Assembly (NCBI GenBank): GCA_014193315.1
Contig: BJHS01000001.1
Location: 124,001-188,000, forward strand
Direction: 5' to 3'
DNA from: Verrucomicrobiota bacterium
GTDB taxonomy: Bacteria > Verrucomicrobiota > Verrucomicrobiia > Opitutales > UBA953
DNA: 64,000 nucleotides
In this document: in pieces, positions 1 to 36,216 of the stretch
Layout: each line of letters opens with the position of its first letter
Position numbering within the stretch: the first letter of the stretch is position 1
Notes under the pieces: generated by a model
Told to the model about the DNA's origin: nothing
Database searches by the model: none
Seen by the model: only the letters and a program-made list of their open reading frames with translations
Program-made: the position numbers and the translations under genes

Positions 1-614
1 AGGTGAAGCGCGATGTCGGCATGACCTTCGCGGCCGCGCTGCGCGCGATGCTCCGCCAAGCGCCGAACATCGTGATGATCGGGGAAATCCGCGACTTGGA
101 GACCGCCGAAATCGCGATCAACGCGGCCCTCACCGGTCACATGGTGTTCTCGACCCTGCACACCAACGATTCCGTCAGCGCCGTCACCCGCCTCGTCGAT
201 ATCGGCGTCAAGCCCTTCCTCGTGTCCGCGGCGCTCCGGGGCGCGCTGGCCCAGCGCCTGGTCCGCCGCGTCTGCCAGTCCTGCGCGCAGCCCTACAAGC
301 CGACGGCCAAGGAACTCTACACCATTGGGATGACCGAGCAGGATGTCGCCGGGGCCAGCCCGATGAAGGGCGCGGGTTGCCCCAAATGCGGCGAACGCGG
401 CTACAAGGGCCGCCGCGGCGTCTTCGAACTCTTCGTCATCACCGAGGAGATCCAGGAAATGATTTATTCCGGCGCCCCCCTCGTCGACCTCCGCCGCAAG
501 GCCCGCGAGGCCGGCATGCGCACCATGCGCGAGGACGGCCAGCGCAAGGTCGCCTCCGGGATGACCACCATCGAGGAGGTCATGGGCGCCACCGTGACCG
601 ATGACGTCATCTGA
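1..614 (+). CDS. PilB/GspE-family secretion ATPase, C-terminal part (truncated by window edge)
   Basis: This is the C-terminal 203 residues of a type II secretion / type IV pilus assembly ATPase; the N-terminus lies outside the window. The frame is open to base 1, so the GTG at base 3 is an internal Val and not a start. Visible are the Walker B region ([10 protein letters not shown]), the His box (STLHTNDS), the conserved [12 protein letters not shown] segment and a CxxC...CxxC zinc-binding insert (CQSC and CPKC). These features fit PilB/GspE rather than PilT. It differs from the second copy at 1708 in having RQAPN where most relatives, including that copy, have RQDPD. The stop is one base upstream of the likely pilT start, so the genes are probably co-transcribed. 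Family assignment is firm. Whether it powers pilus extension or secretion cannot be told. Confidence 0.93.
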
Positions 615-615
615 C

Positions 616-1686
616 ATGGCCTACGACATCCACCAGCTCCTCGAGGCGATGATCGAGAACGGCGCCTCCGACCTGCACCTGCACGTCGGCCGCGCACCCA
701 GCCTGCGCGTCGGCGGCAGTGTCGTCTCCATCGAGGGCGTCGCGCTCACCCCCGAGGACACGGAGGCCCTCGTCCAGTCCATCACCCCGCCCGCGCAGTT
801 GGAACGGCTGAAGCGCGACGGCGGCTGCGATTTCGGTTTCTCCTTTCACAAGAAATCCCGCTTCCGCGTGAACGTCTACCGGGGCAAAGGCGTGCTGGGC
901 ATGGTCCTCCGTTTGATCCCGGCCAAGATGTACACGCTCGAGCAGCTCCGCCTGCCGCCGATGATCAAGGACCTGCTCCGGCGGCCGCGCGGCCTGATCC
1001 TCGTGACCGGCCCGACCGGTTCGGGTAAGTCGACCACGCTCGCCTCGATGGTCGATTGGATCAACCATAACGAGGACGGTCACATCGTCACCATCGAGGA
1101 CCCGATCGAGTACTACCACGCCCACAAGAACTGCGTCGTCACCCAGCGCGAGGTGCACAACGACGTCCCGAGCTTCGCCGAAGGCATCCGCTCGGCGCTC
1201 CGCCAGGACCCCGATGTCATCCTGATCGGGGAGATGCGCGACCTCGAGACGATCGAGGCCGCCGTCTCCGCCGCCGAGACCGGCCACCTGGTCTTCGGCA
1301 CCCTCCACACGACGGGCGCGGCCCGCACGGTCGATCGGATCCTGGACGCCTTCCCCGCCGGCGCCCGCGACCAGATCCGCGTGCAGCTCGCCTCCTCCGT
1401 CGTCGCCGTCATCTCCCAGTGCTTGCTGCGGACCACCGACGAGAAGCGCGTCGCCGCCTACGAGATCATGATCCGGACGGACGGCATCGCCGCCAAAATC
1501 CGCGAGAACAAGACCTTCCAGATCACCTCCGACATCGAGACCGGCGCGGCGCGCGGCATGCGCACCTTGGACGCCGACCTCCTGGCGCTGTTCAATCAGG
1601 GCGTGATCGCCGAGGACGAGGTCTTCAACTATTGCCAGGACTCCGAGATGATGCGCCAGCGTATCAAGGGCGGCGCCGCCCGTTAA
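616..1686 (+). CDS. pilT: Type IV pilus retraction ATPase PilT
   Basis: PilT-family hexameric ATPase, 356 residues, which would power pilus retraction at the inner membrane. Visible are the N-terminal ASDLHLHVG segment, Walker A GPTGSGKS at about residues 132-139, an Asp box (IEDPIEYYH), Walker B (LIGEMRDLE) and the His box (GTLHTTGAA). There is no CxxC zinc insert, which separates it from PilB/GspE. I chose ATG 616 because PilT proteins normally begin at this point ([10 protein letters not shown]); an in-frame ATG at 601 would overlap the upstream gene. It sits between two PilB/GspE-type ATPases and ahead of pilC. PilU is a close paralogue and cannot be excluded. Confidence 0.93.
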
Positions 1687-1707
1687 TCCCCACCCACTTG
1701 CTTTCCC

Positions 1708-3393
1708 ATGTTTGACGACCACAGCGACCTTATCCGCGAAATCGCCCTCGAGGCGGGGCTGGCGGACCAGACCCAGTCCGATGACATCTGGGAATCCCAC
1801 GCGACCACCGGTAAATCCTTCGCCGACAGCCTCATCGACGCCGGGCTCGCCGACCGTCCCGCGATCCTGCAGGCCATCGCCGATCACCTGCATGTGCAGT
1901 ACTACTCCGTCGTCCCCGCCGAGACCGACGCCGAGGTCGTGCGCCTGCTCAAGCCGGCCCAGGCCCACAAGTACATGGTCGTCCCCGTCTCCGATGAGGC
2001 CGGCAAACTGACCTTGCTGGCGAAAGACCCTTTCAACTACGGCGTCGTCAGCGAACTCACCTTCATCCTGCAGCGCGCGATCGAGCTCGCGGTCGCCGAC
2101 CCCGATCAGGTCGAGGCCGGGGTGATCCGCAGCTATGGCGAGGCCGCGGCCACCTCGATGGACGACCTCCTCGGGGAGTTTGAACAAGTCGACGGTACCG
2201 CCGCCGCGACCGACGAGGACGTCACCAAGCAGGCCAGCCAAGCCCCGATCATCCGCTTCGTCGACCTAGTGCTCCAGGAGGCCGTCAAGGCGAAGGCGTC
2301 CGACATCCACTTCGAGCCGTTCGAGGACCAGTTCCGCATCCGCTACCGCATCGACGGCTCGCTCTACGAGATGGCCCCGCCGCCCAAGAACCTGGCGTCC
2401 GCGGTCATCGCCCGCGTCAAGGTCCTCTCCTCGCTCAACATCGCCGAGCGCCGCGTCCCGCAGGACGGCCGTATCAAGACCACCATCGGCGGCCGGGCCA
2501 TCGACCTGCGCGTCTCCACTCTCCCGACCCAGTTCGGCGAATCCGTGGTGCTACGTATCTTGGACAAGACCGTCGTCAACCTGAGCCTCGACGCGCTCTC
2601 GATGCAGGACGACATCAAGGAAGGTATCCGCGCCATGGTGAGTCGCCCCAACGGCATCTTCATTGTCACCGGCCCCACTGGCTCCGGCAAGACGACCACC
2701 CTTTACTCCGCGCTCCGCGAGGTGAACACCGAGGACGTCAAGATCCTCACGGCTGAGGACCCCGTCGAGTACGAGGTCGAGGGGATCATGCAGGTCCCGA
2801 TCAATCACCAGGTTGGGCTGACCTTCGCCGCGGCTCTCCGCTCCTTCCTTCGTCAGGATCCCGACACCATCATGGTCGGGGAAATCCGCGACCTCGAGAC
2901 CGCCCAGATCGCCGTGCAGGCTTCGCTGACCGGTCACGTGGTGCTGTCGACGCTCCACACCAACGACGCCCCGGGCGCCGTGACCCGTCTCATCGACATG
3001 GGGTTGGAGCCCTTCCTGATCTCGGCCTCTCTGGAGGGCGTGCTCGCCCAGCGCCTCCTGCGCCGTATCTGCAAGGCCTGCCGCACCGCCTACGAGCCCG
3101 ACAAGGAGGTCATCGGCATGCTCGATGTCGAGGCCCTGGAGATCGCCAACCGCAAGTTCTACTACGGCAAGGGTTGCCCCGAGTGCAACCGCTCGGGTTA
3201 TCGCAGTCGCCAAGGCCTGTTTGAATTGATGACCATCAGCGACCCGATCCGTACGCTCATCACCCAGAAGGCGCCAACCCTCGTCCTCAAGCAAAAGGCC
3301 ATCGAGGTCGGGATGCGGCCGCTCCGGGAGGATGGCCTGCGTTGCATCTTCGACGGCCTGACCACGATTGAGGAAGTCCTTAAATACACCTAA
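1708..3393 (+). CDS. Type IV pilus / type II secretion assembly ATPase (PilB/GspE family)
   Basis: Full-length 561-residue PilB/GspE ATPase. It has an N-terminal GspE-N-type domain (roughly residues 30-140), a linker, then the ATPase core. The core shows Walker A GPTGSGKT at 322-329, an Asp box (AEDPVEYE), RQDPD, Walker B ([10 protein letters not shown]), the His box ([10 protein letters not shown]) and a four-Cys zinc motif (CKAC and CPEC). The enzyme would assemble pilin subunits together with the polytopic platform protein encoded next (pilC, 21 bases downstream). The leader before ATG 1708 is C-rich and shows no Shine-Dalgarno. It is clearly paralogous to the truncated ATPase at the window start. 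Sequence alone does not separate PilB from GspE; the adjacent pilT favours a pilus system. Confidence 0.93.
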
Positions 3394-3414
3394 CCTTTCC
3401 ACCACCCCCATCCC

Positions 3415-4656
3415 ATGCCCGACTATAAGTATAACGCCATCGACCGTAACGGCGCGCAGACCTCCGGAAAGATCGACGCGGCCAGCGAGGAGCAGGCCCG
3501 CTCGAAATTGATGGCCCGCGGCCTCATGGTGACGACCCTCGCGGGGGACGGTGCCGCGGCCAAGCCGCTCGACGGCGGTAACGCCGCGAAGAAGCCGGGC
3601 TTCAGCTTCGGCGCCAAGGTCACCCAGGATGACGTGACCATCATGACGCGGCAGCTGGCCACACTCATCGTCGCCGGTCTGCCTCTGCTTCGGGCGCTTG
3701 AGCTCATCCATAAGCAGGAGCGCAACCCGGCGTTCAAGAACATCCTCGCCAACATCGCCGAGAGCGTGTCGCAGGGCAATAACCTCTCCGAGGCCCTGCA
3801 GGCCCACCCGAAGGTCTTTGACCGCCTCTTCGTCAACATGATCCGCGCGGGTGAAGCCGGCGGCGTGCTCGACAAGGTCCTCGACCGTCTCGCTAAGTTC
3901 CGGGAAAAGGCTTCCCGTATCCAGAAGAAGGTGAAGTCGGCGATGGTCTACCCGGCGGTCGTCGTGAGCGTGGCCGTGGTCATCGTCTTCATCCTTATGG
4001 TGAAGGTCGTGCCTTCCTTCCAGAACCTGCTCAGCGGCCAGAAGACCCAGATGCCCGCGCTCACCGCGTTCGTCGTCGGCATCTCCAACGCCCTCGTGAC
4101 CTACTGGTACATCACCCCGGTCGTCATCATCGGCGGCTTCGTCGGCGTGAAGGCCTGGCTGGCCACGGCGAAGGGCAAGGAGCTGTTCGACCGCGTCATC
4201 TTCAAGCTGCCCAAGGTCGGCGGCTTCGTGCAGATCGTCTCGGTCTCGCGCTTCGCCCGCACCTTCGGCACGCTGATGGCGTCGGGCGTCCCGATCCTGC
4301 AGGCGATCACCATCACCCGCGACACCCTCGACAACGTCGTCATCGCGAATTCGCTCGAGCGCGTCCACGATCGGGTGCGTGATGGCGAGCCCCTGTCCGT
4401 GCCGCTGGAACAGACCGGCGTCTTCCCGCAGATGGTCACCTCCATGATCCAAGTCGGCGAGGAGACGGGCCAGCTGCCCGAGATGCTCAACCGCGTGGCG
4501 GACATCTACGACGAAGAAGTCGACAACGCGGTCGGGGCGCTGACTTCCATCATCGAGCCGGTGCTCATCGTGGGTCTGGCGGTGGTCGTCGGGACGATCG
4601 TGCTCGCGATGTTCCTGCCGCTCATCGCGCTGATTACGAAGATGTCCGGCGGCTGA
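3415..4656 (+). CDS. pilC: Inner-membrane platform protein PilC/GspF
   Basis: PilC/GspF polytopic platform protein of 413 residues, the normal family length. It begins with the typical MPDYKYNAIDRNG segment, followed by two GspF repeats. The first has TRQLATLIVAGLPLLRALE, and the second has RFARTFGTLMASGVPILQAI. Each repeat is followed by hydrophobic membrane segments; the last one (IIEPVLIVGLAVVVGTIVL) closes the protein. It anchors the assembly ATPase to the nascent pilus. It is the last gene of the motor operon and is followed by a strong hairpin and T-run. The leader (pyrimidine/C-rich, ending CCCATG) lacks a Shine-Dalgarno. Confidence 0.94.
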   Translation: MPDYKYNAIDRNGAQTSGKIDAASEEQARSKLMARGLMVTTLAGDGAAAKPLDGGNAAKKPGFSFGAKVTQDDVTIMTRQLATLIVAGLPLLRALELIHKQERNPAFKNILANIAESVSQGNNLSEALQAHPKVFDRLFVNMIRAGEAGGVLDKVLDRLAKFREKASRIQKKVKSAMVYPAVVVSVAVVIVFILMVKVVPSFQNLLSGQKTQMPALTAFVVGISNALVTYWYITPVVIIGGFVGVKAWLATAKGKELFDRVIFKLPKVGGFVQIVSVSRFARTFGTLMASGVPILQAITITRDTLDNVVIANSLERVHDRVRDGEPLSVPLEQTGVFPQMVTSMIQVGEETGQLPEMLNRVADIYDEEVDNAVGALTSIIEPVLIVGLAVVVGTIVLAMFLPLIALITKMSGG

Positions 4657-5144: not shown

Positions 5145-6476
5145 ATGAGTGAAGATACCCCTCCACCCCCGCCGGCGGATGATTCCTTGCCGCCCGGCTC
5201 TGCCGAAGTCGGGGCCGAAGCCTCGGATGCCCCTGCGCCCGAACTTAAGACCGCGCGCGGGCAACGCTCTTTCTGGCAGAAGCTCGGCGGCGAGGGTCTG
5301 ACCATCTCCCTCTTTATCCACGGTATCCTGATCATCATCGCCGCGATCTGGGTCATCTCGACCGTCACCGATTCCGTCAAGAAGGACCCCGATAGTTTCT
5401 CGACGGGGGCCGGCGGTGGCAGTGCCGGCGACCGTGCCAAGAATCAGCCGCACAAGGTTGTGCCGAAGAACGCGAAGACCTTGGCCAAGAATGCGTCGCG
5501 AATCACCTCCAAGAACGCCAACGCGGCGATCTCGCTTCCCGACCTGCCGGTCTCGTCCAGCGCCGCGATGATGGCGGGCATGACCGCGGGCGGCAGCTCG
5601 AAGGGTTTCGGCGGCGGCTCTGGCGGCGGCATCGGCTCGGGTATGGGCGTCGGCGTCGGCAATGGGCGCAACTTCGTCGGCAAGTCCGTCATGGGCGCCA
5701 AGATCTTCGCCGCGAAAATCGCGGTTTTCATGGACGCCTCCGGCTCCATGTCCGGCTACATCGATCGCGTCGAGACCGAGATTCGCAAGCAGTTCCCCGA
5801 CGCCGACGTCTACTGCTACAACGGCTTGTTCATCACCGTCCAGGATGGCATAATCATCGGGGGGGAGCATTTTCGAGGCCAGCCCATCCGCTCGGCCGGC
5901 CTCGGCGTCCGCGAGACGGACCAGAAGAAGCTCACCGGGACCGGGAAGAACCTTTACAAGAAGTTTGATGATAATTTTAAGCTAGGCTCCGCCGGGGCCT
6001 GGCTCGACATCATGCGCCAGCAGCGTTCTTATGACGCGCTGGTGCTGTTCTCCGACTTCCAGGACGGCGTGACGCAGTACCGCATCAAGGGCGAGAAGAC
6101 CGACACGAATGTCCAGGGCGGGGGTTTCCCGATCATCTACTATGACGGGGTGCGCGCCGACGTGGCTCGCGGTAGCGATGCCCGCAAGCCGGTCGAACGG
6201 CGCTGGGAGGAGGAGTGGCTGAAGTCCTTCTCCGACGCGAAGGATGGCAAAGGTCCGCGCCTCTATTGCTTCTCCACCGAGCAGGAGCCGCAGCAGCTGC
6301 TTTCCAAGTGCGTGCTCGCGTCCGGTGGTCAGATCAAGATGGTGACCTGGCTCAAGACCGGGGGGGCTCCCCCGGAAGATCCGCCCGCTCCCCCGGCGGC
6401 CGCCAATGGCGCCGCGCCCGCCCCCGCCGCCGGCGTCCCGTTGCCTGCCCCGAAGGCTTACAAGCCGCCTCGCTAA
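5145..6476 (+). CDS. Membrane-anchored von Willebrand A domain protein, copy 1
   Basis: 443-residue protein with a Pro-rich cytoplasmic N-terminus and one membrane helix at about residues 51-72. A Gly/Ser-rich low-complexity linker (about 145-175) follows, then a vWA-type domain from about 178. A metal-ion-dependent adhesion site motif DASGS sits at 197-201, and a later acidic loop reads LFSDFQDG. The C-terminus is Pro/Ala-rich. It is closely related to the next gene: both share SLPDLP, VGK.V.GA.I, RV..EIRKQFPDADV and the SDFQDGV block, so they are tandem paralogues. vWA domains usually mediate protein contacts through a bound divalent metal; the partner here is unknown. The domain would face the periplasm if the N-terminus is cytoplasmic. 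Confidence 0.8.
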   Translation: MSEDTPPPPPADDSLPPGSAEVGAEASDAPAPELKTARGQRSFWQKLGGEGLTISLFIHGILIIIAAIWVISTVTDSVKKDPDSFSTGAGGGSAGDRAKNQPHKVVPKNAKTLAKNASRITSKNANAAISLPDLPVSSSAAMMAGMTAGGSSKGFGGGSGGGIGSGMGVGVGNGRNFVGKSVMGAKIFAAKIAVFMDASGSMSGYIDRVETEIRKQFPDADVYCYNGLFITVQDGIIIGGEHFRGQPIRSAGLGVRETDQKKLTGTGKNLYKKFDDNFKLGSAGAWLDIMRQQRSYDALVLFSDFQDGVTQYRIKGEKTDTNVQGGGFPIIYYDGVRADVARGSDARKPVERRWEEEWLKSFSDAKDGKGPRLYCFSTEQEPQQLLSKCVLASGGQIKMVTWLKTGGAPPEDPPAPPAAANGAAPAPAAGVPLPAPKAYKPPR

Positions 6477-6502
6477 GGGTAACCCTTCGGGTGATGGACT
6501 CC

Positions 6503-6528: not shown

Positions 6529-6547
6529 GTTAGGCTAACCTGTCGGC

Positions 6548-7633
6548 ATGCCAGCCGAAGCACCTTTGATTGCCGCTCGCCGCTCCCCGCGCTCGTGGCG
6601 GGGCTTTCTGGCCTCATTACTCGTGCACATCGGCCTGATCGCCAGCGCCGCTTGGTTCGTCGTATCCCGGACGACCTCCTTGCCGCGAGGGCCTGACCCT
6701 TCGGTCCACACCGTCGCCGGCGGTCGAGAGGCGGGCAGCGAGACCCCTGTCCGTAAGGCGCCGCCTCCGGCTCACCCGGCGGTGGCGCTCCGACGCATCG
6801 CCGTCGCTAGCCCAAGCAGCGTCAGTCTACCCGACCTGCCGGCGGCGCAGGCTCTCGGCGGCTTGGCGGCTTCGTCCGCTGGTCAGGGGCCCGGAGGCCT
6901 GAGTGGCGGGCGCGGCTTCGGCGGTGGGGGTGGCCAGGGCCTCGGGCTCGGCCAAGGGCTCGCCGCTGGCTTCGTCGGTAAGCCCGTTCTGGGCGCGACC
7001 ATCCGGGCCCAGAAGGTCGCGGTCTACCTCGACTGCTCGGGCTCGATGAAGCCCTACCTCGAGCGCGTGGACGGTGAGATCCGGAAGCAATTCCCCGATG
7101 CCGATGTGTTCCGGTTCGATGGGGCCCGCGTGGTGGCACTCGGCGACGACATCGTCCACGGCCGGCGATTCCACGGCGACGCCCCGAAGTTGCACGAGGG
7201 TCCCACGGAGACGGTGGTGGCCAGTTTGACGGCTTCGGGGCAACGTTTGCAGGCGAAGATCCGGGAGGCTTGCGAGAAGGGTTCGCTGGGGGCCTGGGTC
7301 GATTGGCTTCTCGCCGAACCTTATGATGCGCTCGTCGTCTTTTCGGATTTTCAGGACGGGGTCCGCATCTACGAGGAAGGCCCCAAGGGCAACTCGCACC
7401 TGATTTATTCAGATAGCGCTTACCACCGGATGAATGACCGCAAGGCGCTTTCCTACCGGTGGGAGAAAGCCTGGCTCGAGGCGTTCGGCCAGGCCGAGCA
7501 ACGGCAGGGTCCCCGGCTCTACCTCTTCAGTATCCAGACCCCTCCGCAGGACTTTCTGCTGAAGTGCGTGCAGGCCTCGGGGGGCACGGCCGTGGACGTC
7601 GGTTGGCTCCGCTCCGGTCGACGAGGCCGTTGA
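6548..7633 (+). CDS. Membrane-anchored von Willebrand A domain protein, copy 2
   Basis: 361-residue paralogue of the preceding gene with the same architecture. A short basic N-terminus is followed by a membrane helix at about 19-40, a linker carrying SLPDLP, a Gly-rich stretch (about 115-140), and a vWA domain with DCSGS at 162-166 and VFSDFQDGV further on. It is shorter because the N-terminal Pro-rich segment and the C-terminal tail are missing. Shared blocks (EIRKQFPDADV, a GSLGAW/GSAGAW segment, GPRLY.FS, KCV.ASGG) indicate tandem duplication with substantial divergence. The leader has no Shine-Dalgarno. A thioesterase gene follows after 45 bases. The function is not known; a scaffold or binding role at the inner membrane is a guess from the domain. 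Confidence 0.78.
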   Translation: MPAEAPLIAARRSPRSWRGFLASLLVHIGLIASAAWFVVSRTTSLPRGPDPSVHTVAGGREAGSETPVRKAPPPAHPAVALRRIAVASPSSVSLPDLPAAQALGGLAASSAGQGPGGLSGGRGFGGGGGQGLGLGQGLAAGFVGKPVLGATIRAQKVAVYLDCSGSMKPYLERVDGEIRKQFPDADVFRFDGARVVALGDDIVHGRRFHGDAPKLHEGPTETVVASLTASGQRLQAKIREACEKGSLGAWVDWLLAEPYDALVVFSDFQDGVRIYEEGPKGNSHLIYSDSAYHRMNDRKALSYRWEKAWLEAFGQAEQRQGPRLYLFSIQTPPQDFLLKCVQASGGTAVDVGWLRSGRRGR

Positions 7634-25324: not shown

Positions 25325-25354
25325 CAAAAAAGAAAGGCCGCCTGACGGCGGCCT
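25325..25354 (-). terminator. Intrinsic terminator after the ExbB/ExbD operon
   Basis: An 8-bp stem pairs AGGCCGCC (25335-25342) with GGCGGCCT (25347-25354), with loop TGAC. On the minus strand it is followed by a T-rich tract (the A-rich bases 25326-25334 on the plus strand). It lies 21 bases after the exbD stop. Confidence 0.85.
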
Positions 25355-25375
25355 CGGCGAGGGCGGCGGGGCCGC

Positions 25376-25819
25376 TTATTCCGGCTCCGCGACCGCGAAG
25401 GTCACGTTATTGATGTCCGCGCGGGCGAGGACATCCAACACGTTAATCACGCGCTCATAGCGGGCGGCTTCCTCGGCCTGCACGGTGATGAGCAGCTTGG
25501 AACCGGACTGGATGGCCGCCTGCTTGAGCTTGGTCATCTCGTTGAAGAGGCCGTCAAGGGTCTTGTCTTGGGGGGTGCCGACCGGGTCTTCGTTGATGGT
25601 GATCTGGCCGTTCTCCGAGACGCCGATGGTGATCTCGTCGGGGATTTCGGTCGCGGTGGAGGTCTCGGCGTTGCCGGGGAGGGTGGTCTTGAGCTCGTGT
25701 TCGACCTTCACGGCGCCAGCCATGACCATGAAGAATAGCATGATCACGAAGACCACGTCGATCATCGGGGCGATCTGGAAACCGGCGTCCGAAGGCACTT
25801 CATGAGGGGGGCGCTTCAT
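25376..25819 (-). CDS. ExbD/TolR-family protein, copy 2
   Basis: 147 residues, standard ExbD/TolR length. A short N-terminal tail is followed by IAPMIDVVFVIMLFFMV, where Asp21 is the conserved proton-conducting residue in the single membrane helix, and then a periplasmic domain. It works with an ExbB/TolQ homologue to turn proton motive force into mechanical work on an envelope partner. It is four bases from the upstream exbD copy and last before the terminator. The periplasmic part is only weakly like copy 1, so the two are probably distinct subunits and not redundant. Confidence 0.9.
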   Translation of the reverse strand: MKRPPHEVPSDAGFQIAPMIDVVFVIMLFFMVMAGAVKVEHELKTTLPGNAETSTATEIPDEITIGVSENGQITINEDPVGTPQDKTLDGLFNEMTKLKQAAIQSGSKLLITVQAEEAARYERVINVLDVLARADINNVTFAVAEPE

Positions 25820-25822
25820 GGT

Positions 25823-26263
25823 TTATTCTTCGCGGTTGAGCCCGGAGAAGGCGATGTTGTCGATGCCGGCTTCGCCAGCCCATTCGAGGGCCTTGGAGAT
25901 GTACTTGGCATGGCAGTCCTTATCGGCGCGGATCAGCAGGCGGTATTTCTCGTTGGTGCCTTTGCGGGCCTGCAGTTCCTTGGAGATGCCGTCCTTGTCG
26001 TTCGGGTCGAGCTCGCGGTCGTCGAGTTTGTACTTTGCCTGACCGGTGGTCTTGTCCCACGAGATGTTGATCAAGCCGGCCGCGGCCTTGTCGTCGCGCT
26101 TCACGCCGTGGGCGGCGACCGGGAGCGAGATATTCTTGTCGACCTTGAGCACTTGGGAGGAGGTGATCGACATGAAGAAGATCAGGAGGACCAGGAGCAC
26201 GTCGATCATCGGCGCGACCTGGAATTCCGGTTCGCCTTCTCCGCCTCCGCCTCCGCCTGCCAT
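25823..26263 (-). CDS. ExbD/TolR-family protein, copy 1
   Basis: 146 residues. It begins with an unusual Gly-rich tail (MAGGGGGGEGE), then VAPMIDVLLVLLIFFMS with the key Asp21 in the membrane helix. A longer periplasmic domain ends in a KALEWAGEAGIDNIAF segment typical of ExbD/TolR. It lies between exbB (28 bases) and the second exbD (three bases). The leader before the ATG is A/C-rich (CCTAACCCAACCCC) without Shine-Dalgarno. Confidence 0.9.
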   Translation of the reverse strand: MAGGGGGGEGEPEFQVAPMIDVLLVLLIFFMSITSSQVLKVDKNISLPVAAHGVKRDDKAAAGLINISWDKTTGQAKYKLDDRELDPNDKDGISKELQARKGTNEKYRLLIRADKDCHAKYISKALEWAGEAGIDNIAFSGLNREE

Positions 26264-26291
26264 GGTTGTGCTGGGGTTGGGTTAGGGGTGA

Positions 26292-27086
26292 TCAGGCCTG
26301 CGGCTCGGAGTTCGCCGGGACAGTGTTCCACACGGGCTTGGCCGCGTAGAGCTCGTCGCCGCCGACGTTCCGGCCTTGGATCTCGGCGTAGGGGAAGCCG
26401 CGGAAGAGGCCGCCGACGATCTCAGTGATATCATGGATGCCCTTCTGGATGCGATTGCGGAGCAGGTAGTAGGCGATGAACGCCGGGATTGCGATGAAGA
26501 GGCCGGAGGCGGTCGCCACGAGCACTTCGCCGATCGCTTCGGCGAGTTTGGAGGGGTCGCCCACGCCGGAGGAACCGAGCTTTTCGAAGGCCTTCATCAT
26601 GCCGGTCACCGTGCCGGTCAGGCCGATCATCGGGGTACAGACCCCGATCACGGAGAGGTAGGAGGCCCGGCCCATGAGGTCGGCTTGGATGCGGGCGATC
26701 TCGGAGATGATGGCCTCCTCGGTCATGGTCTTGCCATCGGGGCTGAGCGCCACGCCGGCGCGCACGATCTCGCAGATCGGGGAGCCGGCTTGCTTGGCGA
26801 ACTCATGGGCGGCGACATAGTCACCGGAGCGGAAGAGGTCGCGGAGCTGGATGACATGCTCGGCCGGGTAGAGTTTCTTGGCACTGGTCTTCAGCACGCC
26901 GTCGACGATGAACCAGATCATGGCGACGGAGCAGATGGTGATGGGGTACATGACCCAACCGCCCTCATGGAATAGGGTGAGCAGGGTCTTCTCCTTAACG
27001 CCTGGGGCGTCCTGTGCGGAGGCGGCCAAGGTAGACAACCCGAGGAAGAGGGAGGTCAGGAGGGGGGTGCGGAGTTTCATCTTCAT
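26292..27086 (-). CDS. MotA/TolQ/ExbB-family proton channel protein
   Basis: 264 residues. The N-terminus is a signal-peptide-like helix (MKMKLRTPLLTSLFLGL... ending ASAQ), as in the longer ExbB proteins. Three membrane segments follow (about 42-62, about 140-165 and about 190-215). The conserved MotA/ExbB core reads LSVIGVCTPMIGLTGTVTGMMKAFE and IGEVLVATASGLFIAIPAFIAYY. It would form the proton channel with the two ExbD proteins encoded downstream. No tonB, tolA, tolB or pal gene is adjacent; the upstream partners are two secreted helical-repeat proteins. Confidence 0.9.
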   Translation of the reverse strand: MKMKLRTPLLTSLFLGLSTLAASAQDAPGVKEKTLLTLFHEGGWVMYPITICSVAMIWFIVDGVLKTSAKKLYPAEHVIQLRDLFRSGDYVAAHEFAKQAGSPICEIVRAGVALSPDGKTMTEEAIISEIARIQADLMGRASYLSVIGVCTPMIGLTGTVTGMMKAFEKLGSSGVGDPSKLAEAIGEVLVATASGLFIAIPAFIAYYLLRNRIQKGIHDITEIVGGLFRGFPYAEIQGRNVGGDELYAAKPVWNTVPANSEPQA

Positions 27087-27142
27087 AGGGATGATTGGGT
27101 GGGTTTGGGTATTTAGCTAGGATTTAGGGAAGGGGCAAGGAC

Positions 27143-28165
27143 TCACTTGTTGCCCTCGTCGGAGGGGGCCGTCGGCGCGGCGGGTTTGGCGGCGCCTTCG
27201 GGGATGACGGCGGCATCCTGGATTTTGCGCTGGCCTTCCTCGGCTTGGAGGCGGTCCTCCTTGGGGAGGAGCTTCTTGGCTTCTTCGGCCTCCTTGGAGG
27301 TCGGGTAGGTGGTGACGATGTCACGCAGGTAGCGGTTGGAGACATCTTCGAGCTTTTGCTCGCGAGTGGCCGGGGTGTCCATCCCGCGGAAAGAGCGGGC
27401 GGCACCGAGCAACGCCTTGGGGACGTGCTCCTGCTGGGATCCGAAAAAGACCGGCACGCGCAGGAAGGTGTTCATGGCGGCCTCGTATTTCTTCGTGGCG
27501 AGCAGGGAGGACCCCTTGACGAGATGAAGGCGGGCCAGCAGGTCGGGGTCGTCCATCTGCGGGATCAAGGCGGTGGACTCGGCGATGACGGCCTCGTGTT
27601 CACCGCGGCGAGCGCGCTGCATCAGGCGGGCCAGCTTGATCTTGGTGGCGAGTTCGGGGATGGAGCCGTCGTCGGCCTTTTCCAGGTTATCGAGGAAAGA
27701 GCTGAGGACGGCATCGTTGGCGAGTCGATCGAGGGCGTCGAGCTTGACGATGGAGGCCTTGAGCCACCAGCTGCCGGGTACCTTCTTGATTGGCTCGAAG
27801 AATTTGATGATGGGCTCGATGTTATCGAGGGCCTTGCCGGGTTCGCCGCGGTTGACGTTGTTCTGGGCGTCCGTCAGGCGTTCGGGGAGGGGCCAGACGA
27901 TGCGTTCGACCTCGGCCAGCTTGCGGGTCATGACGAGTTCGGTGCCATCCTGGACGGTCGTGCGTTCCACGGTGCCCTTGAGGCTGCTGATGGTCCCCTT
28001 TTTGTTGTCGATGACGGGCTTCGGGGGAATGACGGAAGTATCGACCTTGAAGGGGTCGTTGACTTCCCAGCGTTCGCCGCCCTTGAAGATCAGGGCTTGA
28101 CCGAAGGCGGGCACGGCGACGCCGAGCGCGGCGGCGGCGAGGAGGAGGCGGGGGAAGGGGCGCAT
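27143..28165 (-). CDS. Secreted helical-repeat protein of the ExbB/ExbD locus
   Basis: 340 residues with a signal peptide (MRPFPRLLLAAAALGVAVPAFGQ). A short beta-like segment (about 25-85) is followed by a TPR-like helical region and an Ala/Pro-rich, charged C-terminus. No catalytic motif is visible. It lies three bases after the giant TPR gene and 56 bases before exbB, all on one strand. It is therefore likely a periplasmic partner of the ExbB/ExbD motor. The function is unknown. Confidence 0.7.
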   Translation of the reverse strand: MRPFPRLLLAAAALGVAVPAFGQALIFKGGERWEVNDPFKVDTSVIPPKPVIDNKKGTISSLKGTVERTTVQDGTELVMTRKLAEVERIVWPLPERLTDAQNNVNRGEPGKALDNIEPIIKFFEPIKKVPGSWWLKASIVKLDALDRLANDAVLSSFLDNLEKADDGSIPELATKIKLARLMQRARRGEHEAVIAESTALIPQMDDPDLLARLHLVKGSSLLATKKYEAAMNTFLRVPVFFGSQQEHVPKALLGAARSFRGMDTPATREQKLEDVSNRYLRDIVTTYPTSKEAEEAKKLLPKEDRLQAEEGQRKIQDAAVIPEGAAKPAAPTAPSDEGNK

Positions 28166-28168
28166 GGC

Positions 28169-31100
28169 TTAGAGGCGGGTGTTGAGCGACTTGGCTTCGG
28201 CGGCTTCCGGGGTGTCCTTGATGCGGTCCTTGGACAGCATCTCGGCGAGGACCAGCTTGGCCTCGGGCTTCTGGCCGAGTTTATCGGAGAGCATGCGGGC
28301 GGTGCCGAGGTAGGCTTTGGCCGACCAGGACTCGTACTTTTTCCAGGTTTGGTAGCAGCGGCGATAGTAAGCGACGGACTTCTTGAAACCATCCGTGGCG
28401 TCGGCTGGCTCATGGTTGACGAGGGCATTGATGGTCACGGTCGTCTTGCTCTCTTCCTTGTTGTCGACCTTGACGGTGAGGGTGGCCGTAAACTCTCCGG
28501 CCGTGGCATAAGTGTGGGTCGGCTTGGCCTCGTGCGAGGTCGGCAGTTTATCCCCGAAGTCCCAGTGGTAAGTCACTTCGCCCTTCGGTTTCTCTTCCGG
28601 TCTCGGGGCCATGAACTTGACGGTCAACGGGGCCGCGCCGGAGGTGGGAGAGGTGCCCGCCATCGCGGCCGTCACCCCCGTCGGGCCAACTTCGTCCTTG
28701 GGTTTCTTGATTAGGCTGGGTTTGCCTTGGGCCATCTGGTTGGCGTTGCGTTCATGGATCTGGCCAAGCCAGAAGAGGGCGGCGGCCGTCATCTCGCCGC
28801 GCCACTCCTTGGTGCGCATGATATCCTCGAATTCCTTGATGGCCTCGTCCAGCCGGGAGAGCTCGGCGAGGGCGCGGGCACGGGCGAACTTGATCTCCTT
28901 CTCCTTCGACATCGTGATGTTGTTGTCGACGGCCTCGTTGCAGAGCTCGAGCACCTCCTTGAATTTCTTCTGCTGGAGCAGGATCTCGGCCAGGCCCGCG
29001 AAGCCGAAGTCCGCGTACTCGGACGACCGGTTGTGCTCTTTGATGTACTCGAAGTAAGCGGCGGCCTTCGGGGCCTCGCCCTTGGAGAGCAGGTGGTCGC
29101 CGACGACGGCGAGGATGGTCGGGCTCAGCTCCTCGGCCTTGTAGTTGGCGGAGACCTTCTTGAAGAAGGTGTCGGCGCGCTCGGGGTTACGCAGGAAGAC
29201 ATTCAACTGGCCCATGGCGAAGAAGCCGCGGGCTTGGGCGATGAGGGAGTCCTTGTTCTCCGTGAGGCGGAGCAGCTGGGTCAGCTCGGCTTCCGCGTTG
29301 GCGGGGGAATAGGCGGCGGGGTCGACCGGGGTGCCGGGCTTCACGCGCTTCACCTTGCGGGCGAGCTTCTCGCAGAGGAAGATGACGAGCTTCTCGTTGC
29401 CTTCCTGTTTGCGATCGTTGATGGACTCGGCGACGGCGGAGGACAGCAGGGCGAGCGCCTCGGTCTTGGCGTCGCGGATGCTGGCCTGGCGGTCCTTGTC
29501 GACGACGGCGAGCTCGTCGGCGAGCTTCGCGGAGAGCTTGGTGACCTCGGCCTTGGCGGCGGCGATGGCCTCCTTGGTGCTGCCATCCTGGCGCTCGAGA
29601 GCGTCGACCTTCTTGCGTTCGGCGGCGAGCTGGCCGCTGAAGCGCTTCTGGACCTCCTCGCTGCGCTGGGCGAACTCCGGCTTATCGCCCAGTCGTTCGG
29701 TGGCCTTGATGACCTCGTAGAGGTAGGTGAGCGCCTTCGGGTCGTTATGGTCCCAATCGTAGACCTCCTTGTAAAGGTCGCGCATGCGGGCGTGCTCGCC
29801 GCGGCCGGGGAGGAGCTTGCCCAGCTCGCGGAGGACGAACTCCAGCGCGTTGGTATTGGTGCGGCCGGAGCGGGCGGCGGCGACGTAGGCGTCTATCGCC
29901 TTGGCGGTATGGCCGTCCTTCTCCTTTTCGAAGGCGGCCTTCTTCGCCAGGAACTTCTTCTTCGTCTCGGGGGCAGGGTTGGTGCGGGCGGACTCGTCGG
30001 CCTGGCGGATGGACTTATCGAGCTCGGTCGCCAGGCGCATCTCGGCGTCGCCGATTAGCGTGTGGACCTCGGGCACTTGGTTGACCACATTCTCGTCCTT
30101 GTTGACGGCGTAATCCCTGAGCCACTCGTTGCAAAGGCGGAGCGTCTCGACGGTCTCGGGCGGCTGGAGGCCGAACTTCACGATGGCCTGGCGGTAGCGA
30201 ACGTCGGCCAGGAACTTCCCCTTTCCGGCGAAGTCGACTAGGTACTGGTCGAAGCCGGCCTTGGTCTCCTTGTACTTGCCCTGGTAGAACCAGCAGAGCG
30301 CACGCATGTACGCGGACTGCTCGCGGGCGAGGGAACGCGGGTACTTTTGGTTGAAGGTGTCGAGGGCGGCGCCTGCTTGGTCCCAGTCGACGTTGGCGAA
30401 GAGGCAGCAGATGATGCGGAAGTCGATCTCCTCGACCGTGGACGGGTCGATCTTCTTCACGTTGGCCTTGGCCCAATTGTAATGCTCGATGGCTTCCTTG
30501 TACTCCTCGCGGTCCTGGGAGATCTCGCCCAGGATGACGGCGACCGCCGAGACCTCGTCGGCGTCGGGGTACTTCTGGAGGAACTCCTTGCACTTGGCCT
30601 GGGCCTCGGTGTTGCGGCCGATCTGGCGGAGGGCGAGGATGTAGTAGTAGTAGGCCCCGGAGACCTTGGTGAAGCCGGGGTTGTTATCGAAGATATCCCG
30701 GAAGGCCACGAAAGCCTCCCAGTGCTTGTTCAGCTCGAGCAAGCAGAGGCCGATGCGGTAGGAGATGAACGCGTCGTAGTCCTTGTTCGCGGCGAAATCG
30801 GCCTCGATCTTCTTGAATTGCTCCACGCCGGCGCGGGCTTCCTCGATCTTGATTTTGGCGTTGTCGTCCGGCTTCGGGTAGAGCTTCACCAGGTTGTCCA
30901 CTTCGGCCTGTTTCGCCTCGACGGCCCGCGTGACGGAGCGGGCGACGGTCGCGCGGCGGAGGGTGCCTTGGTAACTCGCGAGGGCTTGGCGGTAGAGCTC
31001 GAACTTCTCCTTTTCCTCGGGGGCGTTTTCAGCGGCCTCGAAGCGGGAGTCGCCGATCTCGATGCGCTGGAAATTGGAACGGACGATGTCCGCCGGGGAA

Positions 31101-31849
31101 CCCGTGCCGCGGGCGTCGACCTCGGCCTTGAGCTGTTCGGCTTCCTTCGTGAGCCCGAGTTTGGTGTAGACTTCGACGAGTTTGGCGGCGGCTTCGCGGC
31201 GCTCGGGCGTACCGAGGCCCTCCGCGATGGCGGACTTCAGCAGCTGCATGGCCTGACCGAGGGCTTTCTTCTTGTCCTCGGCACCGGCGGACTTGGCTTT
31301 CTCCTCGATGATGCGGGCCGAAAGGGTGTAGGCGCTGATGCGGTCCTCGGCGCGGATGGAGACGTTGGGGGCGCGGAGTTTCTCGAGCAGGGCCAAGGCG
31401 GGATCCCACTTGGACTGGCTGGCGTAGGCTTCGACCAGCGTGAGTTGGGCGATGCCGCGCTTATTGTCCGTGCCGTAGAAGTCGTTGGTGCCTTTCGGGT
31501 GCTTGGCCAGGAAGGCGGTCAGTTCGGTCTCGGTCTTCGCCCAGTCCTTGAGCGAGTAGGCGGCCACGGCCTTGTTGAAATCCAGGACGGCCTTCAGCAT
31601 CTCGCTGCCTTCCGCGCCGAGTAGCTTCTCGAGCTCGGTCAGGGTGTCGTAGGCGGCCTGGTATTTCTTGGCCTCCATCTCCTTGCCGGCACGTTTGAAC
31701 AGCTGATCGAGCTTATTCTCCGCGGCGGGCGCGGCAGTGGCGGGCTTGGTCTGGCCGTGCAACGTGCCCGCAAGCGGGGTGCAGGCCAAAAGGACGGCCA
31801 AGATGGCGGCTTTGGCCATTTGGTAGGTGCGGGACTCGGGAGTGGCCAT
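28169..31849 (-). CDS. Giant periplasmic TPR protein with a PKD domain
   Basis: About 1226 residues. The signal peptide (MAKAAILAVLLACTPLAGTLHGQ) starts at residue 11 of the chosen start. ATG 31819 would begin exactly at that peptide and may be the true start; an open frame reaches 31957. Most of the protein is tandem TPR-type helices with Lys/Glu/Ala-rich stretches and a coiled-coil-like part around the middle. Near the C-terminus one PKD-type beta-sandwich is visible at about 1065-1142 (APLTVKF, YHWDFGD, HTYATAGEFTATL). A final helical segment follows. It heads the locus with the 340-aa protein, ExbB and two ExbD. The architecture suggests a long periplasmic scaffold driven or clamped by the motor; this is inference. 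Confidence 0.75.
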   Translation of the reverse strand: MATPESRTYQMAKAAILAVLLACTPLAGTLHGQTKPATAAPAAENKLDQLFKRAGKEMEAKKYQAAYDTLTELEKLLGAEGSEMLKAVLDFNKAVAAYSLKDWAKTETELTAFLAKHPKGTNDFYGTDNKRGIAQLTLVEAYASQSKWDPALALLEKLRAPNVSIRAEDRISAYTLSARIIEEKAKSAGAEDKKKALGQAMQLLKSAIAEGLGTPERREAAAKLVEVYTKLGLTKEAEQLKAEVDARGTGSPADIVRSNFQRIEIGDSRFEAAENAPEEKEKFELYRQALASYQGTLRRATVARSVTRAVEAKQAEVDNLVKLYPKPDDNAKIKIEEARAGVEQFKKIEADFAANKDYDAFISYRIGLCLLELNKHWEAFVAFRDIFDNNPGFTKVSGAYYYYILALRQIGRNTEAQAKCKEFLQKYPDADEVSAVAVILGEISQDREEYKEAIEHYNWAKANVKKIDPSTVEEIDFRIICCLFANVDWDQAGAALDTFNQKYPRSLAREQSAYMRALCWFYQGKYKETKAGFDQYLVDFAGKGKFLADVRYRQAIVKFGLQPPETVETLRLCNEWLRDYAVNKDENVVNQVPEVHTLIGDAEMRLATELDKSIRQADESARTNPAPETKKKFLAKKAAFEKEKDGHTAKAIDAYVAAARSGRTNTNALEFVLRELGKLLPGRGEHARMRDLYKEVYDWDHNDPKALTYLYEVIKATERLGDKPEFAQRSEEVQKRFSGQLAAERKKVDALERQDGSTKEAIAAAKAEVTKLSAKLADELAVVDKDRQASIRDAKTEALALLSSAVAESINDRKQEGNEKLVIFLCEKLARKVKRVKPGTPVDPAAYSPANAEAELTQLLRLTENKDSLIAQARGFFAMGQLNVFLRNPERADTFFKKVSANYKAEELSPTILAVVGDHLLSKGEAPKAAAYFEYIKEHNRSSEYADFGFAGLAEILLQQKKFKEVLELCNEAVDNNITMSKEKEIKFARARALAELSRLDEAIKEFEDIMRTKEWRGEMTAAALFWLGQIHERNANQMAQGKPSLIKKPKDEVGPTGVTAAMAGTSPTSGAAPLTVKFMAPRPEEKPKGEVTYHWDFGDKLPTSHEAKPTHTYATAGEFTATLTVKVDNKEESKTTVTINALVNHEPADATDGFKKSVAYYRRCYQTWKKYESWSAKAYLGTARMLSDKLGQKPEAKLVLAEMLSKDRIKDTPEAAEAKSLNTRL

Positions 31850-31991: not shown

Positions 31992-32930
31992 TCATCGCCC
32001 CGACTTCCGCCCCGTGGCAAGGAGGGTCTCAAAGCCTGGCTCGCGCGGTTCCTTGGCGACCACCCTGACTTCGGAGGCCCGGAAGCCCGCTTCCTCCATC
32101 CAATCGTGCAGGTCGTTCTCCTTGAAGCCTAGCCAGCGGTCAGCGTAGAGCTCGCGCGCCTTCTCGAAGCGGTGGGCTCGTAGATCGAGGATGAGGACTT
32201 GCCCCCCGGGTTTAAGGATTCGATGGGCTTCGGTCAGGGCTTTCCGAGGGTTTTCGGCATGGTGCAGGGCCTGACTGAGCAGAACCAAGTCCACACACCG
32301 GTCAGGCAGGGGGGTGTCCTCGATATCACCAAGGACGTAGTCCACGTTCTGGAGCTGCTCTTTTTTGGCCAAGGCACGCCCGAGCTCGACCATCCGCGGG
32401 GAGTTGTCGACGCAATGCACATACTCCGCCTGGCGGGCCAGCAGGCGGGACAAAGTGCCGTCGCCCGCCCCGAGGTCGGCGATGCGCACCTTCGGGACGA
32501 GGAGCAGGAGCAACTGGCCGATGGCCTCCCACGAACGGCCTGGGCAGTAGTTTTTACCGAGCCGGTCGGCCACGAGGTTGAAGTGTTGCTCTGCTTTCCG
32601 GCGACGCTTCTCCACGATCCGTTGCAAGGCCCGTTGGTCGGCTCGGGCGGCCGGTTCGGCCTCGGTGGCGCTCGCGGCGGCCTTCAGGATGCTCTGTACG
32701 CCCGCGCCCAGCCCGCGGGCCAGAGCGTAGTAAGAGTGCTTACCGTCGCGGCGATCCTCCGCCAAGCCAGCCTTGCGGAGCAAGGCGAGGTGGGTCGAGA
32801 TGCGCGACTGGCGCATGCCAAGGATTTCCTGGAGTTCGCCGACCGAAAGTTCGCCCTTCGCCAGTAGGAACAGCAGGCGGGCCCGGGTGGGGTCGGACAG
32901 GAGGCGGAGGGATTCCCAGGGGTCGGCCAT
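31992..32930 (-). CDS. ArsR-family regulator fused to a SAM-dependent methyltransferase
   Basis: 312 residues. The N-terminal winged helix-turn-helix of ArsR type is at about 1-85 (LLSDPTRARLLFLLAKGELSVGEL; recognition region RQSRISTHLALLRKAGL). A class I methyltransferase domain follows at about 120-290, with motif I ADLGAGDGTLSR (151-162) and DLVLLSQALHHAENP. No Cys metal site is seen in the HTH. Proteins of this build are often near methionine-cycle genes and may sense SAM or SAH, but no such gene is adjacent here. It seems monocistronic between the greA terminator and the TPR-PKD gene. Confidence 0.85.
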   Translation of the reverse strand: MADPWESLRLLSDPTRARLLFLLAKGELSVGELQEILGMRQSRISTHLALLRKAGLAEDRRDGKHSYYALARGLGAGVQSILKAAASATEAEPAARADQRALQRIVEKRRRKAEQHFNLVADRLGKNYCPGRSWEAIGQLLLLLVPKVRIADLGAGDGTLSRLLARQAEYVHCVDNSPRMVELGRALAKKEQLQNVDYVLGDIEDTPLPDRCVDLVLLSQALHHAENPRKALTEAHRILKPGGQVLILDLRAHRFEKARELYADRWLGFKENDLHDWMEEAGFRASEVRVVAKEPREPGFETLLATGRKSGR

Positions 32931-34985: not shown

Positions 34986-35085
34986 TGCAAAAAGGGGTTT
35001 TGGGCATAACAAAACGCACTTGCAAGCAGGAAGGCGGAGTGCTTTGCGGTCTTCGGTCCCGATTGCCTTGCCTTGACCAATCCCG

Positions 35086-36216
35086 ATGGCCTTTAAGCCC
35101 GAAAAACCCTCCATCCACGGCGAAACGCCGGACACCCTCGGGGCTCGCCTCGTCGAGGCTGGGCACCCACGTTACCGTGTGGCTCAGGTTTTCGAGTGGC
35201 TTTATCCCCGCCGGGTGGGAGCTTCGGAGGCCATGACCAACCTGCCGGCCAACCTCCGGGCCTGGCTGGTCGAAAACTACGACTTCACGGCTACCGACGT
35301 TATGGGCAAGAAAACGGCCTCCGATGTCACCCAAAAGGTCCTCCAGCGCCTCCGGGACGGCTCCTTGATCGAAACCGTCATAATCCGGGCGCCGATGGAG
35401 GGGGTCGGGCAGGAGCAATCCCGCCGGACCATTTGTATTTCGACTCAGGTGGGGTGCGCTTACGGCTGTAAATTCTGCGCTTCGGGCCTTGAAGGCTGGA
35501 AAAGGGACCTTTCCGTGGGGGAAATCGTCTCCCAGCTGGTCCAAGTCTGCCGGATTGAGGACCAGGCCGACCCCATCCGGGCGGCACAGGGGTTGGCCTC
35601 CTTTGACAACATCGTGGTCATGGGGATGGGCGAGCCCCTGGCCAACTATGACAACCTCCTGGCCGCCTTGCGCATCGTCAACGCCCCTTGGGGGTTTGGC
35701 TTCGGGGCGCGCCGCATCACCATCTCGACCTCCGGGGTCGTCCCCAAGATCCTTAAGTTGGCGGAGGAGGACATGGGTTTCCGCCTGGCCATCAGCCTGC
35801 ACGGGGCGACCAACGAGGTCCGCAACCAGATCATGCCCGTCAACCGCAAGTTCCCTTTAGAGGAACTGGTGCCGGCCGCCAAGGCCTTCGCCCGTAAGCA
35901 TGGCCGCATGCTCACGCTCGAGTTCATCCTCATAGAGGACATCAACGACTCGCTCGAGCAGGCGCGGAAGCTGGCGGCGATCGCGCGCGAACTGCACGCC
36001 CACGTGAACCTCATCCCTTACAACAAGGTCGAGGGCCTGCCCTGGGTGCGGCCTTCGCTCACGCGGCAAGACCGGTTCGTCAAGGAGCTCCGGGGGCTCG
36101 GCGTCACCGCCACCTTGCGGCGCGAGAAGGGGCACGACATCGACGCCGCCTGCGGCCAGCTCCGGTTGCAGAAGGAGAAGGAACTACGCGTCGACCCGCC
36201 ACCCGCGGCGGCCTAG
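35086..36216 (+). CDS. rlmN: 23S rRNA / tRNA adenine C2-methyltransferase RlmN
   Basis: 376-residue radical SAM methyltransferase that methylates A2503 of 23S rRNA and A37 of some tRNAs. The Fe-S cluster motif CxxxCxxC is Cys124, Cys128 and Cys131 (GCAYGCKFC). The catalytic Cys pair is present: Cys117 (RTICIST) and Cys356 in the C-terminal DIDAACGQL. It also has MGMGEPLANYDN and SLHGATNEVRNQIMPVN. Length is normal. The leader is CCAATCCCG without Shine-Dalgarno. Its end overlaps the convergent rpe by four bases (CTAG). Confidence 0.96.
   Translation: MAFKPEKPSIHGETPDTLGARLVEAGHPRYRVAQVFEWLYPRRVGASEAMTNLPANLRAWLVENYDFTATDVMGKKTASDVTQKVLQRLRDGSLIETVIIRAPMEGVGQEQSRRTICISTQVGCAYGCKFCASGLEGWKRDLSVGEIVSQLVQVCRIEDQADPIRAAQGLASFDNIVVMGMGEPLANYDNLLAALRIVNAPWGFGFGARRITISTSGVVPKILKLAEEDMGFRLAISLHGATNEVRNQIMPVNRKFPLEELVPAAKAFARKHGRMLTLEFILIEDINDSLEQARKLAAIARELHAHVNLIPYNKVEGLPWVRPSLTRQDRFVKELRGLGVTATLRREKGHDIDAACGQLRLQKEKELRVDPPPAAA

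What the first reader, a model, noticed from the sequence alone, without database searches (positions are those of the whole stretch)
25376..31849. ExbB-ExbD-ExbD motor encoded with a giant periplasmic TPR/PKD protein
Five same-strand genes: a ~1226-aa secreted TPR protein with one PKD domain, a 340-aa secreted helical protein, an ExbB with signal peptide and two different ExbD proteins, closed by a terminator. There is no TonB, TolA, TolB, Pal or receptor. This suggests a proton-driven envelope machine whose load-bearing partners are TPR scaffolds. Seen directly: gene order, signal peptides, the Asp21 in both ExbD helices, PKD block. Inferred: that they form one complex.
Basis: partly seen in the sequence, partly recalled or inferred. 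Interest (0 to 1): 0.6.

Follow-up and report, generated by a model that had tools for sequence, protein, structure and literature searches.

The report
Proton-motor gene set with periplasmic scaffolds
A freshwater Verrucomicrobiota genome carries a five-gene, proton-driven envelope machine that is found across its phylum and is a distant relative of the mucin-uptake locus of the gut bacterium Akkermansia, so it is probably a general engine for taking up large molecules rather than a gut speciality.

Summary
On the minus strand, 31849 to 25376, lie a secreted TPR protein (1226 aa), a 340-aa secreted beta-plus-TPR protein, an ExbB with a signal peptide and two different ExbDs (Asp21 in both), then a terminator. 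The block is kept in the genus and far beyond: of 80 Verrucomicrobiota loci fetched by ExbB alone, 48 of the 52 with enough flank have the same five genes in the same order. The PKD domain is a cassette in a few genus members, not a core part. "No TonB" holds only inside the block: the same window (5145-7633) encodes two TonB-like SxxxH-anchored proteins with vWA-like heads, and the genome has four more, apparently PA14-headed. Sister taxa carry such transducers as a sixth gene with vWA, PA14 or alpha/alpha-toroid heads. Williams-Jones 2025 already described PVC TPR-TolQ-TolR-TolR-vWA operons, function unknown. New here: the ExbBs of these operons and of Akkermansia MUL1 form one clade (98/93), and the TPR partners are profile relatives. 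Best reading: a proton-driven importer of macromolecules with transducers supplied in trans. The homology is strong; the import function is inferred from MUL1.

The parts
28169..31849 (-). 1226-aa secreted TPR protein (Mul1A-like scaffold); ORF extends to GTG 31957 (1262 aa)
   Evidence: TPR_6, YfiO, PKD hits; N-terminal signal peptide-like segment; found in all genus members searched
28382..28738 (-). PKD cassette inserted in the C-terminal TPR region (residues about 1074-1192 of the 1262-aa ORF)
   Evidence: PKD_4 48.7 bits; absent at the same place in most genus members
27143..28165 (-). 340-aa secreted protein, N-terminal beta domain plus TPR helices; distant Mul1B relative
   Evidence: NCBIfam NF052542 26.5 bits, under cut-off 75; profile-profile E 1.3e-16 with Akkermansiaceae Mul1B; AlphaFold2 pLDDT 85
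26292..27086 (-). ExbB/TolQ-type proton channel with N-terminal signal peptide
   Evidence: PF01618 90.4 bits; tree placement
25823..26263 (-). ExbD1, Asp21 in the TM helix
   Evidence: PF02472 62.6 bits; sequence
25376..25819 (-). ExbD2, Asp21 in the TM helix
   Evidence: PF02472 73.8 bits; sequence
25334..25355 (-). intrinsic terminator-like hairpin closing the block
   Evidence: 9-bp stem, 7 GC pairs, T-run; the region has about as many such matches as shuffles, but this is the strongest and lies 20 bp after the last stop
5145..6476 (+). SxxxH-anchored TonB-like transducer 1 with vWA-like head (DASGSM motif)
   Evidence: hit to transducer N-module A7, E 2.0e-23; TM motif SLFIH; head not recognised by Pfam
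6548..7633 (+). SxxxH-anchored TonB-like transducer 2 with vWA-like head (DCSGSM motif)
   Evidence: hit to A7, E 1.1e-12; TM motif SLLVH
3..4656 (+). type IV pilus/type II secretion-type genes (T2SSE x3, the first cut by the window edge, then T2SSF) upstream of the transducer pair; association with the motor not shown
   Evidence: Pfam T2SSE, T2SSF; same neighbourhood in 7 genus genomes

Best explanation
The five genes encode one proton-driven trans-envelope machine of a phylum-wide Verrucomicrobiota family to which Akkermansia MUL1 also belongs. ExbB (pentamer) and the ExbD1-ExbD2 pair form the inner-membrane motor. The large TPR protein and the beta-TPR protein form a periplasmic scaffold. 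Force reaches the outer membrane through SxxxH-anchored TonB-like proteins with exchangeable heads (vWA-like, PA14, alpha/alpha toroid), which in this lineage are encoded elsewhere, two of them in the same window. The load is most likely the import of large glycans or glycoproteins, as reported genetically for MUL genes in Akkermansia. Shown here: gene set, conservation, ExbB clade, shared transducer module, co-occurrence. Inferred: the physical complex, use of transducers in trans, and the import function.
For: Same five genes, same order in 48 of 52 loci. ExbB tree: window operon, phylum-wide operons and MUL1 in one clade, 98/93, with TolQ and other ExbBs outside. MUL1 ExbBs score 102-128 bits against the operon ExbB model, other ExbB/TolQ of this genome 29-43; the two MUL1 ExbDs match ExbD1 and ExbD2 in the same order; Mul1A scores up to 113 bits against the operon TPR model, an unrelated 940-aa TPR protein 33. 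Mul1B versus the 340-aa family: profile E 1.3e-16, crossed-TPR background 1.8e-8 and 7e-6. Transducer module in 22 of 22 genomes with a close ExbB, 56 of 75 with an intermediate one, 14 of 191 others. PA14 heads pass the Pfam cut-off in two members, vWA in two. Three of seven unlinked transducer sites examined have glycoside hydrolases nearby: GH5, GH92 and, in A. muciniphila, GH95. MUL genes are needed for mucin products to accumulate inside Akkermansia (review PMC12418764).
Against: The 340-aa protein is well under the NCBIfam Mul1B cut-off. The MUL1 gene order is permuted (exbB-exbD-exbD-mul1A-mul1B), and at least one Akkermansiaceae genome (G289) has both Mul1A/B and the canonical operon, so MUL1 may be a diverged paralogue with a different load. 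No CAZyme, receptor or porin is encoded in the window block. Co-occurrence counts are not corrected for shared ancestry. The head fold of the window transducers is not confirmed (model pLDDT 42). The original MUL1 paper could not be read here.
Confidence: 0.5

Rival explanations
1. It is an outer-membrane maintenance machine, a Tol-Pal-like system: the motor pulls TPR scaffolds to tether or constrict the outer membrane, and the likeness to MUL1 reflects a shared motor only.
For: ExbB and ExbDs score best to tolQ/tolR among NCBIfam models; the closest solved folds to the 340-aa protein are BamD and CpoB-type TPRs; the operon is kept in organisms of different habitats.
Against: All NCBIfam Tol cut-offs are missed by a wide margin. 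No TolB or Pal in the block. The genome has a separate TolQ-TolR-TolA-like set on C7, and the ExbB tree puts that TolQ outside the operon clade. PA14 and toroid heads are not expected for an outer-membrane tether.
Confidence: 0.2
2. It powers surface motility or pilus-coupled attachment (gliding-like), with vWA transducers touching surface structures, as suggested for vWA transducers by Williams-Jones 2025.
For: The window's transducer pair sits near type IV pilus-type genes, kept in 7 genus members; pili and a periplasmic complex are both needed for mucin accumulation in Akkermansia.
Against: Pilus adjacency was checked only inside one genus where the whole region is syntenic, and a tRNA gene lies between. 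The other transducer sites read show no such neighbours that I recognised. No gliding gene was seen in the block.
Confidence: 0.12
3. It is an ordinary TonB-ExbB-ExbD energiser for TonB-dependent receptors, and the TPR proteins are accessory.
For: One TonB-dependent receptor is found in this genome, 3-4 in several genus members.
Against: NCBIfam ExbB/ExbD cut-offs missed; transducer heads are not TonB C-terminal domains; the genome carries a separate exbB-exbD pair (C24); genus member G001 has only a 19.6-bit receptor hit yet keeps the operon.
Confidence: 0.08

Closest known systems
PVC TPR-TolQ-TolR-TolR-vWA force-transducer operon (Williams-Jones et al. 2025, PMC12204202)
   Same: TPR gene, one ExbB/TolQ, a pair of different ExbD/TolR in the same order; SxxxH-anchored vWA transducers
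   Different: In the window's family the transducers are not in the operon; the section read names one TPR gene and only vWA heads, whereas here there are two TPR genes, and PA14 and alpha/alpha-toroid heads also fill the sixth slot; it makes no link to MUL1
Akkermansia muciniphila MUL1 (Mul1A, Mul1B and the adjacent ExbB-ExbD-ExbD)
   Same: ExbB in one clade; ExbD1/ExbD2 order; ~1100-aa TPR followed by ~300-350-aa TPR partner; candidate transducers in trans (two toroid-headed proteins at G148:C1 about 1.346-1.348 Mb)
   Different: Motor block and TPR block are swapped in order; Mul1B far diverged (window protein under the family cut-off); substrate unknown here
TonB-ExbB-ExbD and Tol-Pal
   Same: PF01618 and PF02472 motor proteins, SxxxH transducer helix
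   Different: No TonB/TolA C-terminal domain, receptor, TolB or Pal in the block; two different ExbDs; TPR scaffolds; signal peptide on ExbB

Membership tests
[quoted passage not shown]
PVC TPR-TolQ-TolR-TolR-vWA operon (Williams-Jones 2025) | Downstream transducer with SxxxH helix in the same operon | tested here: not met
   Convergent thrC follows the terminator; transducers are unlinked, at window 5145-7633, C2 and C30
PVC TPR-TolQ-TolR-TolR-vWA operon (Williams-Jones 2025) | vWA fold of the transducer head | tested here: inconclusive
   DxSGSM motif in both window proteins; weak profile match to a Pfam-VWA head (E 1e-4, probability 56%); no Pfam hit; model pLDDT 42
Akkermansia MUL1 | ExbB of the same clade | tested here: met
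   support 98/93 for operon plus MUL1; TolQ and other ExbBs outside
Akkermansia MUL1 | Mul1B family membership (NCBIfam NF052542 cut-off 75 bits) | tested here: not met
   26.5 bits; profile-profile E 1.3e-16 shows distant kinship only
Akkermansia MUL1 | Gene order exbB-exbD-exbD-mul1A-mul1B | tested here: not met
   Order here is TPR-mulB-exbB-exbD-exbD
Akkermansia MUL1 | Import of mucin or another macromolecule | not testable with these tools
   needs genetics and labelled-substrate uptake
TonB-ExbB-ExbD | ExbB and ExbD equivalog scores | tested here: not met
   ExbB 50.9 vs cut-off 206; ExbD 31.6-34.5 vs 153
TonB-ExbB-ExbD | TonB and a TonB-dependent receptor beside the motor | tested here: not met
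   none in the block; one receptor in the genome, unlinked
Tol-Pal | TolQ/TolR equivalog scores, TolB and Pal in the block | tested here: not met
   TolQ 68.9 vs 221, TolR 66.5 vs 127; no TolB or Pal gene in the block

The most novel reading that the evidence does not exclude
One ExbB-ExbD1-ExbD2 motor with a two-protein TPR scaffold is the general macromolecule importer of Verrucomicrobiota. It serves a set of interchangeable SxxxH transducers whose heads (vWA, PA14, alpha/alpha toroid) act on different loads, encoded in the operon or in trans. Akkermansia MUL1 is one specialised branch of it, not a gut invention.
Probability: 0.35. Interest if true: 0.85.

Novelty: new variant of a known kind. 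Interest (0 to 1): 0.6.

Why it matters
How Verrucomicrobiota take in whole polysaccharides and glycoproteins is largely unstudied. The orphan PVC motor operon had no function assigned (PMC12204202), while MUL1 has a phenotype but was recently called a mucin-specific adaptation of gut lineages, absent from aquatic Akkermansiaceae (PMC13174399). Placing both in one family makes the question testable in cultivable free-living relatives and narrows the 'gut-only' claim to the MUL1 subtype. A shared motor-binding module carrying at least three unrelated heads would also be a new design among proton-driven force transducers.

Tried and rejected
PKD as a core part: rejected, it is a lineage-specific cassette. 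'No TonB' as evidence for TPR transducers: rejected after a profile of the transducer N-module found six copies in the genome. Filing as TonB or Tol system: rejected on cut-offs and context. Structure of the window vWA transducer: only 5 sequences were used, pLDDT 42, so no fold search was made. Foldseek of the 340-aa protein gave only BamD and general TPR matches. No solved structure covers Mul1A, the toroid or the PA14 transducers beyond TPR or weak cyclase hits. The primary MUL1 paper is not in the library. My first comparison of transducer heads used wrong offsets and was redone.
Full report
The observation. The block at 25376-31849 is as described. On the minus strand, in order, lie a secreted TPR protein (28169-31849, 1226 aa; the ORF runs on to a GTG at 31957), a 340-aa secreted protein (27143-28165), ExbB (26292-27086), ExbD1 (25823-26263) and ExbD2 (25376-25819). 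Pfam supports ExbB (90.4 bits), both ExbDs (62.6 and 73.8), PKD_4 (48.7) and TPRs. Both ExbDs carry Asp21 in the helix (FQVAPMIDVLLV, FQIAPMIDVVFV), ExbB begins with a signal peptide, and a terminator-like hairpin follows the last gene. Upstream are an ArsR-methyltransferase fusion and a GreA fusion; downstream, convergent, thrB-thrC.

Conservation. The window is from a 2.36-Mb, 97% complete Verrucomicrobiota genome. All 24 same-genus genomes searched keep the large TPR protein, and the flanking loci show the 340-aa gene and exbB next to it in nearly all cases where the locus reaches. To avoid bias I then fetched loci by ExbB only: 80 named loci, many from lake metagenomes, covering Opitutae, Verrucomicrobiaceae, Akkermansiaceae, Chthoniobacterales, Puniceicoccales and one labelled Lentisphaerae. 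In 48 of the 52 with enough flank the order is TPR, 340-aa type, ExbB, ExbD1, ExbD2, in tandem.

The PKD domain. It is a ~115-aa cassette between two helices near the C-terminus of the TPR protein. It is present in the window genome and in L098, L009 and L105/L010, and absent at the same place in the other genus members, including G014, whose protein is otherwise 88% identical. It is not part of the core design.

The sixth gene and the missing TonB. In many relatives the operon continues into a protein with one N-terminal helix carrying the TonB/TolA-type SxxxH motif, a conserved stretch, a glycine-rich linker and a large head. Three head types occur: vWA (Pfam VWA_3 above cut-off in L130 and L212), PA14 (above cut-off in L126 and L213) and an alpha/alpha toroid like squalene-hopene cyclase. 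The N-terminal modules align across the head types. A search with that module found six copies in the window's genome: two in this window (5145-6476, 6548-7633; motifs SLFIH and SLLVH; heads with DASGSM and DCSGSM), three in tandem on C2 and one on C30, the last four with PA14-type sequence. Of these four, the best Pfam PA14 score is 19.8 bits, under the cut-off of 24; their assignment rests on likeness to the confirmed PA14 heads. The heads of the window pair match a Pfam-confirmed vWA head only weakly, so 'vWA-like' is the fair word.

Co-occurrence. Among 288 genomes of the phylum, all 22 with an ExbB above 300 bits to the operon profile have at least one transducer module hit, against 56 of 75 in an intermediate band read off the printed list and 14 of 191 others. 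In 17 of the 22, a transducer lies within about 6 kb of exbB. The four genomes of the window's family (two genera) are among the five without a linked one. These counts are not corrected for shared ancestry (six families).

Link to MUL1. The 340-aa protein hits the NCBIfam model of Akkermansia Mul1B at 26.5 bits, under its cut-off of 75. G148, whose contig is 2,664,102 bases (the size of the A. muciniphila type-strain chromosome, from memory), has Mul1B at 291.9 bits, a 1101-aa TPR gene before it, and exbB-exbD-exbD before that. Three lines join that locus to the window's operon. First, a maximum-likelihood tree puts MUL1 ExbBs and operon ExbBs in one clade (98/93), with this genome's TolQ, its other ExbBs and several more outside; MUL1 sits with diverged Opitutales operons inside the family (99/95). 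Some end branches are long, which the tool flags. Second, against models built without Akkermansia, MUL1 ExbBs score 102-128 bits while other ExbB/TolQ of this genome score 29-43; the ExbD pair matches ExbD1 and ExbD2 in the same order; Mul1A scores up to 113 bits against the TPR model, while an unrelated 940-aa TPR protein scores 33. Third, profile-profile comparison of Mul1B with the 340-aa family gives E 1.3e-16, against 1.8e-8 and 7e-6 for crossed TPR pairs. The same exbB-exbD-exbD-mul1A-mul1B block is present in other genera of that family (G312, G275, G272), whose names and habitats the tools do not show. A. muciniphila has two tandem toroid-headed proteins at 1.346-1.348 Mb with a weak match to the transducer module (4e-6), near a GH95 gene.

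What is known. Williams-Jones et al. [quoted passage not shown] The review PMC12418764 states that mucin products accumulate in internal compartments in a process needing MUL genes. Wilkie et al. 2026 (PMC13174399) state that MUL1 synteny is absent from aquatic Akkermansiaceae and take it as gut-specific. My data fit that only for the MUL1 subtype: Akkermansiaceae MAGs whose names point to lakes carry the canonical five-gene operon plus a toroid transducer (for example L143, L152, L153, L165).

Mechanism proposed. Proton flow through ExbB with the ExbD1-ExbD2 pair moves a bound SxxxH transducer; its head, with the TPR scaffold, acts on an outer-membrane or captured load; the load is most likely a large glycan or glycoprotein. 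Shown: genes, residues, conservation, clade, shared module, co-occurrence. Inferred: complex formation, use of transducers in trans, and import. Weak extra support: unlinked transducers have GH5 and GH92 genes nearby in G080 and a GH95 gene nearby in A. muciniphila, three of seven sites looked at. The pilus genes near the window's transducers are kept in the genus, but the whole region is syntenic there and a tRNA gene intervenes, so this is only a hint.

Verdict.

Noticed in passing
G000 contig C15, locus L069: 9787-12609, 9136-9777, 8669-9133, minus strand: A second TPR-ExbB-ExbD set: 940-aa secreted TPR protein, 213-aa ExbB-like and 154-aa ExbD-like protein whose TM helix lacks the proton-binding Asp (FTPLAAAGLACALVWLLV).
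   Followed up: partly
L143, L153, L156, L160, L169 (downstream of the operon): In several Akkermansiaceae-type loci the canonical operon and toroid transducer are followed by a second exbB-exbD and an ~800-aa TPR gene.
   Followed up: partly
G000 contig C2, locus L207: 5565-9647: Three tandem SxxxH transducers with nearly identical N-terminal modules and diverging PA14-type heads, as if heads diversify on a fixed anchor.
   Followed up: partly
window 28382-28738: PKD cassette shared with relatives only ~60% identical over the rest of the protein while an 88% identical one lacks it: recombination or repeated loss.
   Followed up: partly
G000 contig C19, locus L070: 7185-9281: 698-aa protein with a PKD domain related to the cassette in the TPR protein; other PKD proteins of about 570-780 aa occur across the genus.
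   Followed up: partly
window 33015-35135: GreA fused to a ~540-aa N-terminal region, matching the NCBIfam model PRK14720 only below its cut-off.
   Followed up: no
window 31992-32930: ArsR-type regulator fused to a SAM methyltransferase, kept next to the operon throughout the genus.
   Followed up: partly
L209: 6713-9888 (A. muciniphila, G148): Two tandem toroid-headed membrane-anchored proteins with identical N-termini, candidate transducers for the MUL1 motor.
   Followed up: partly
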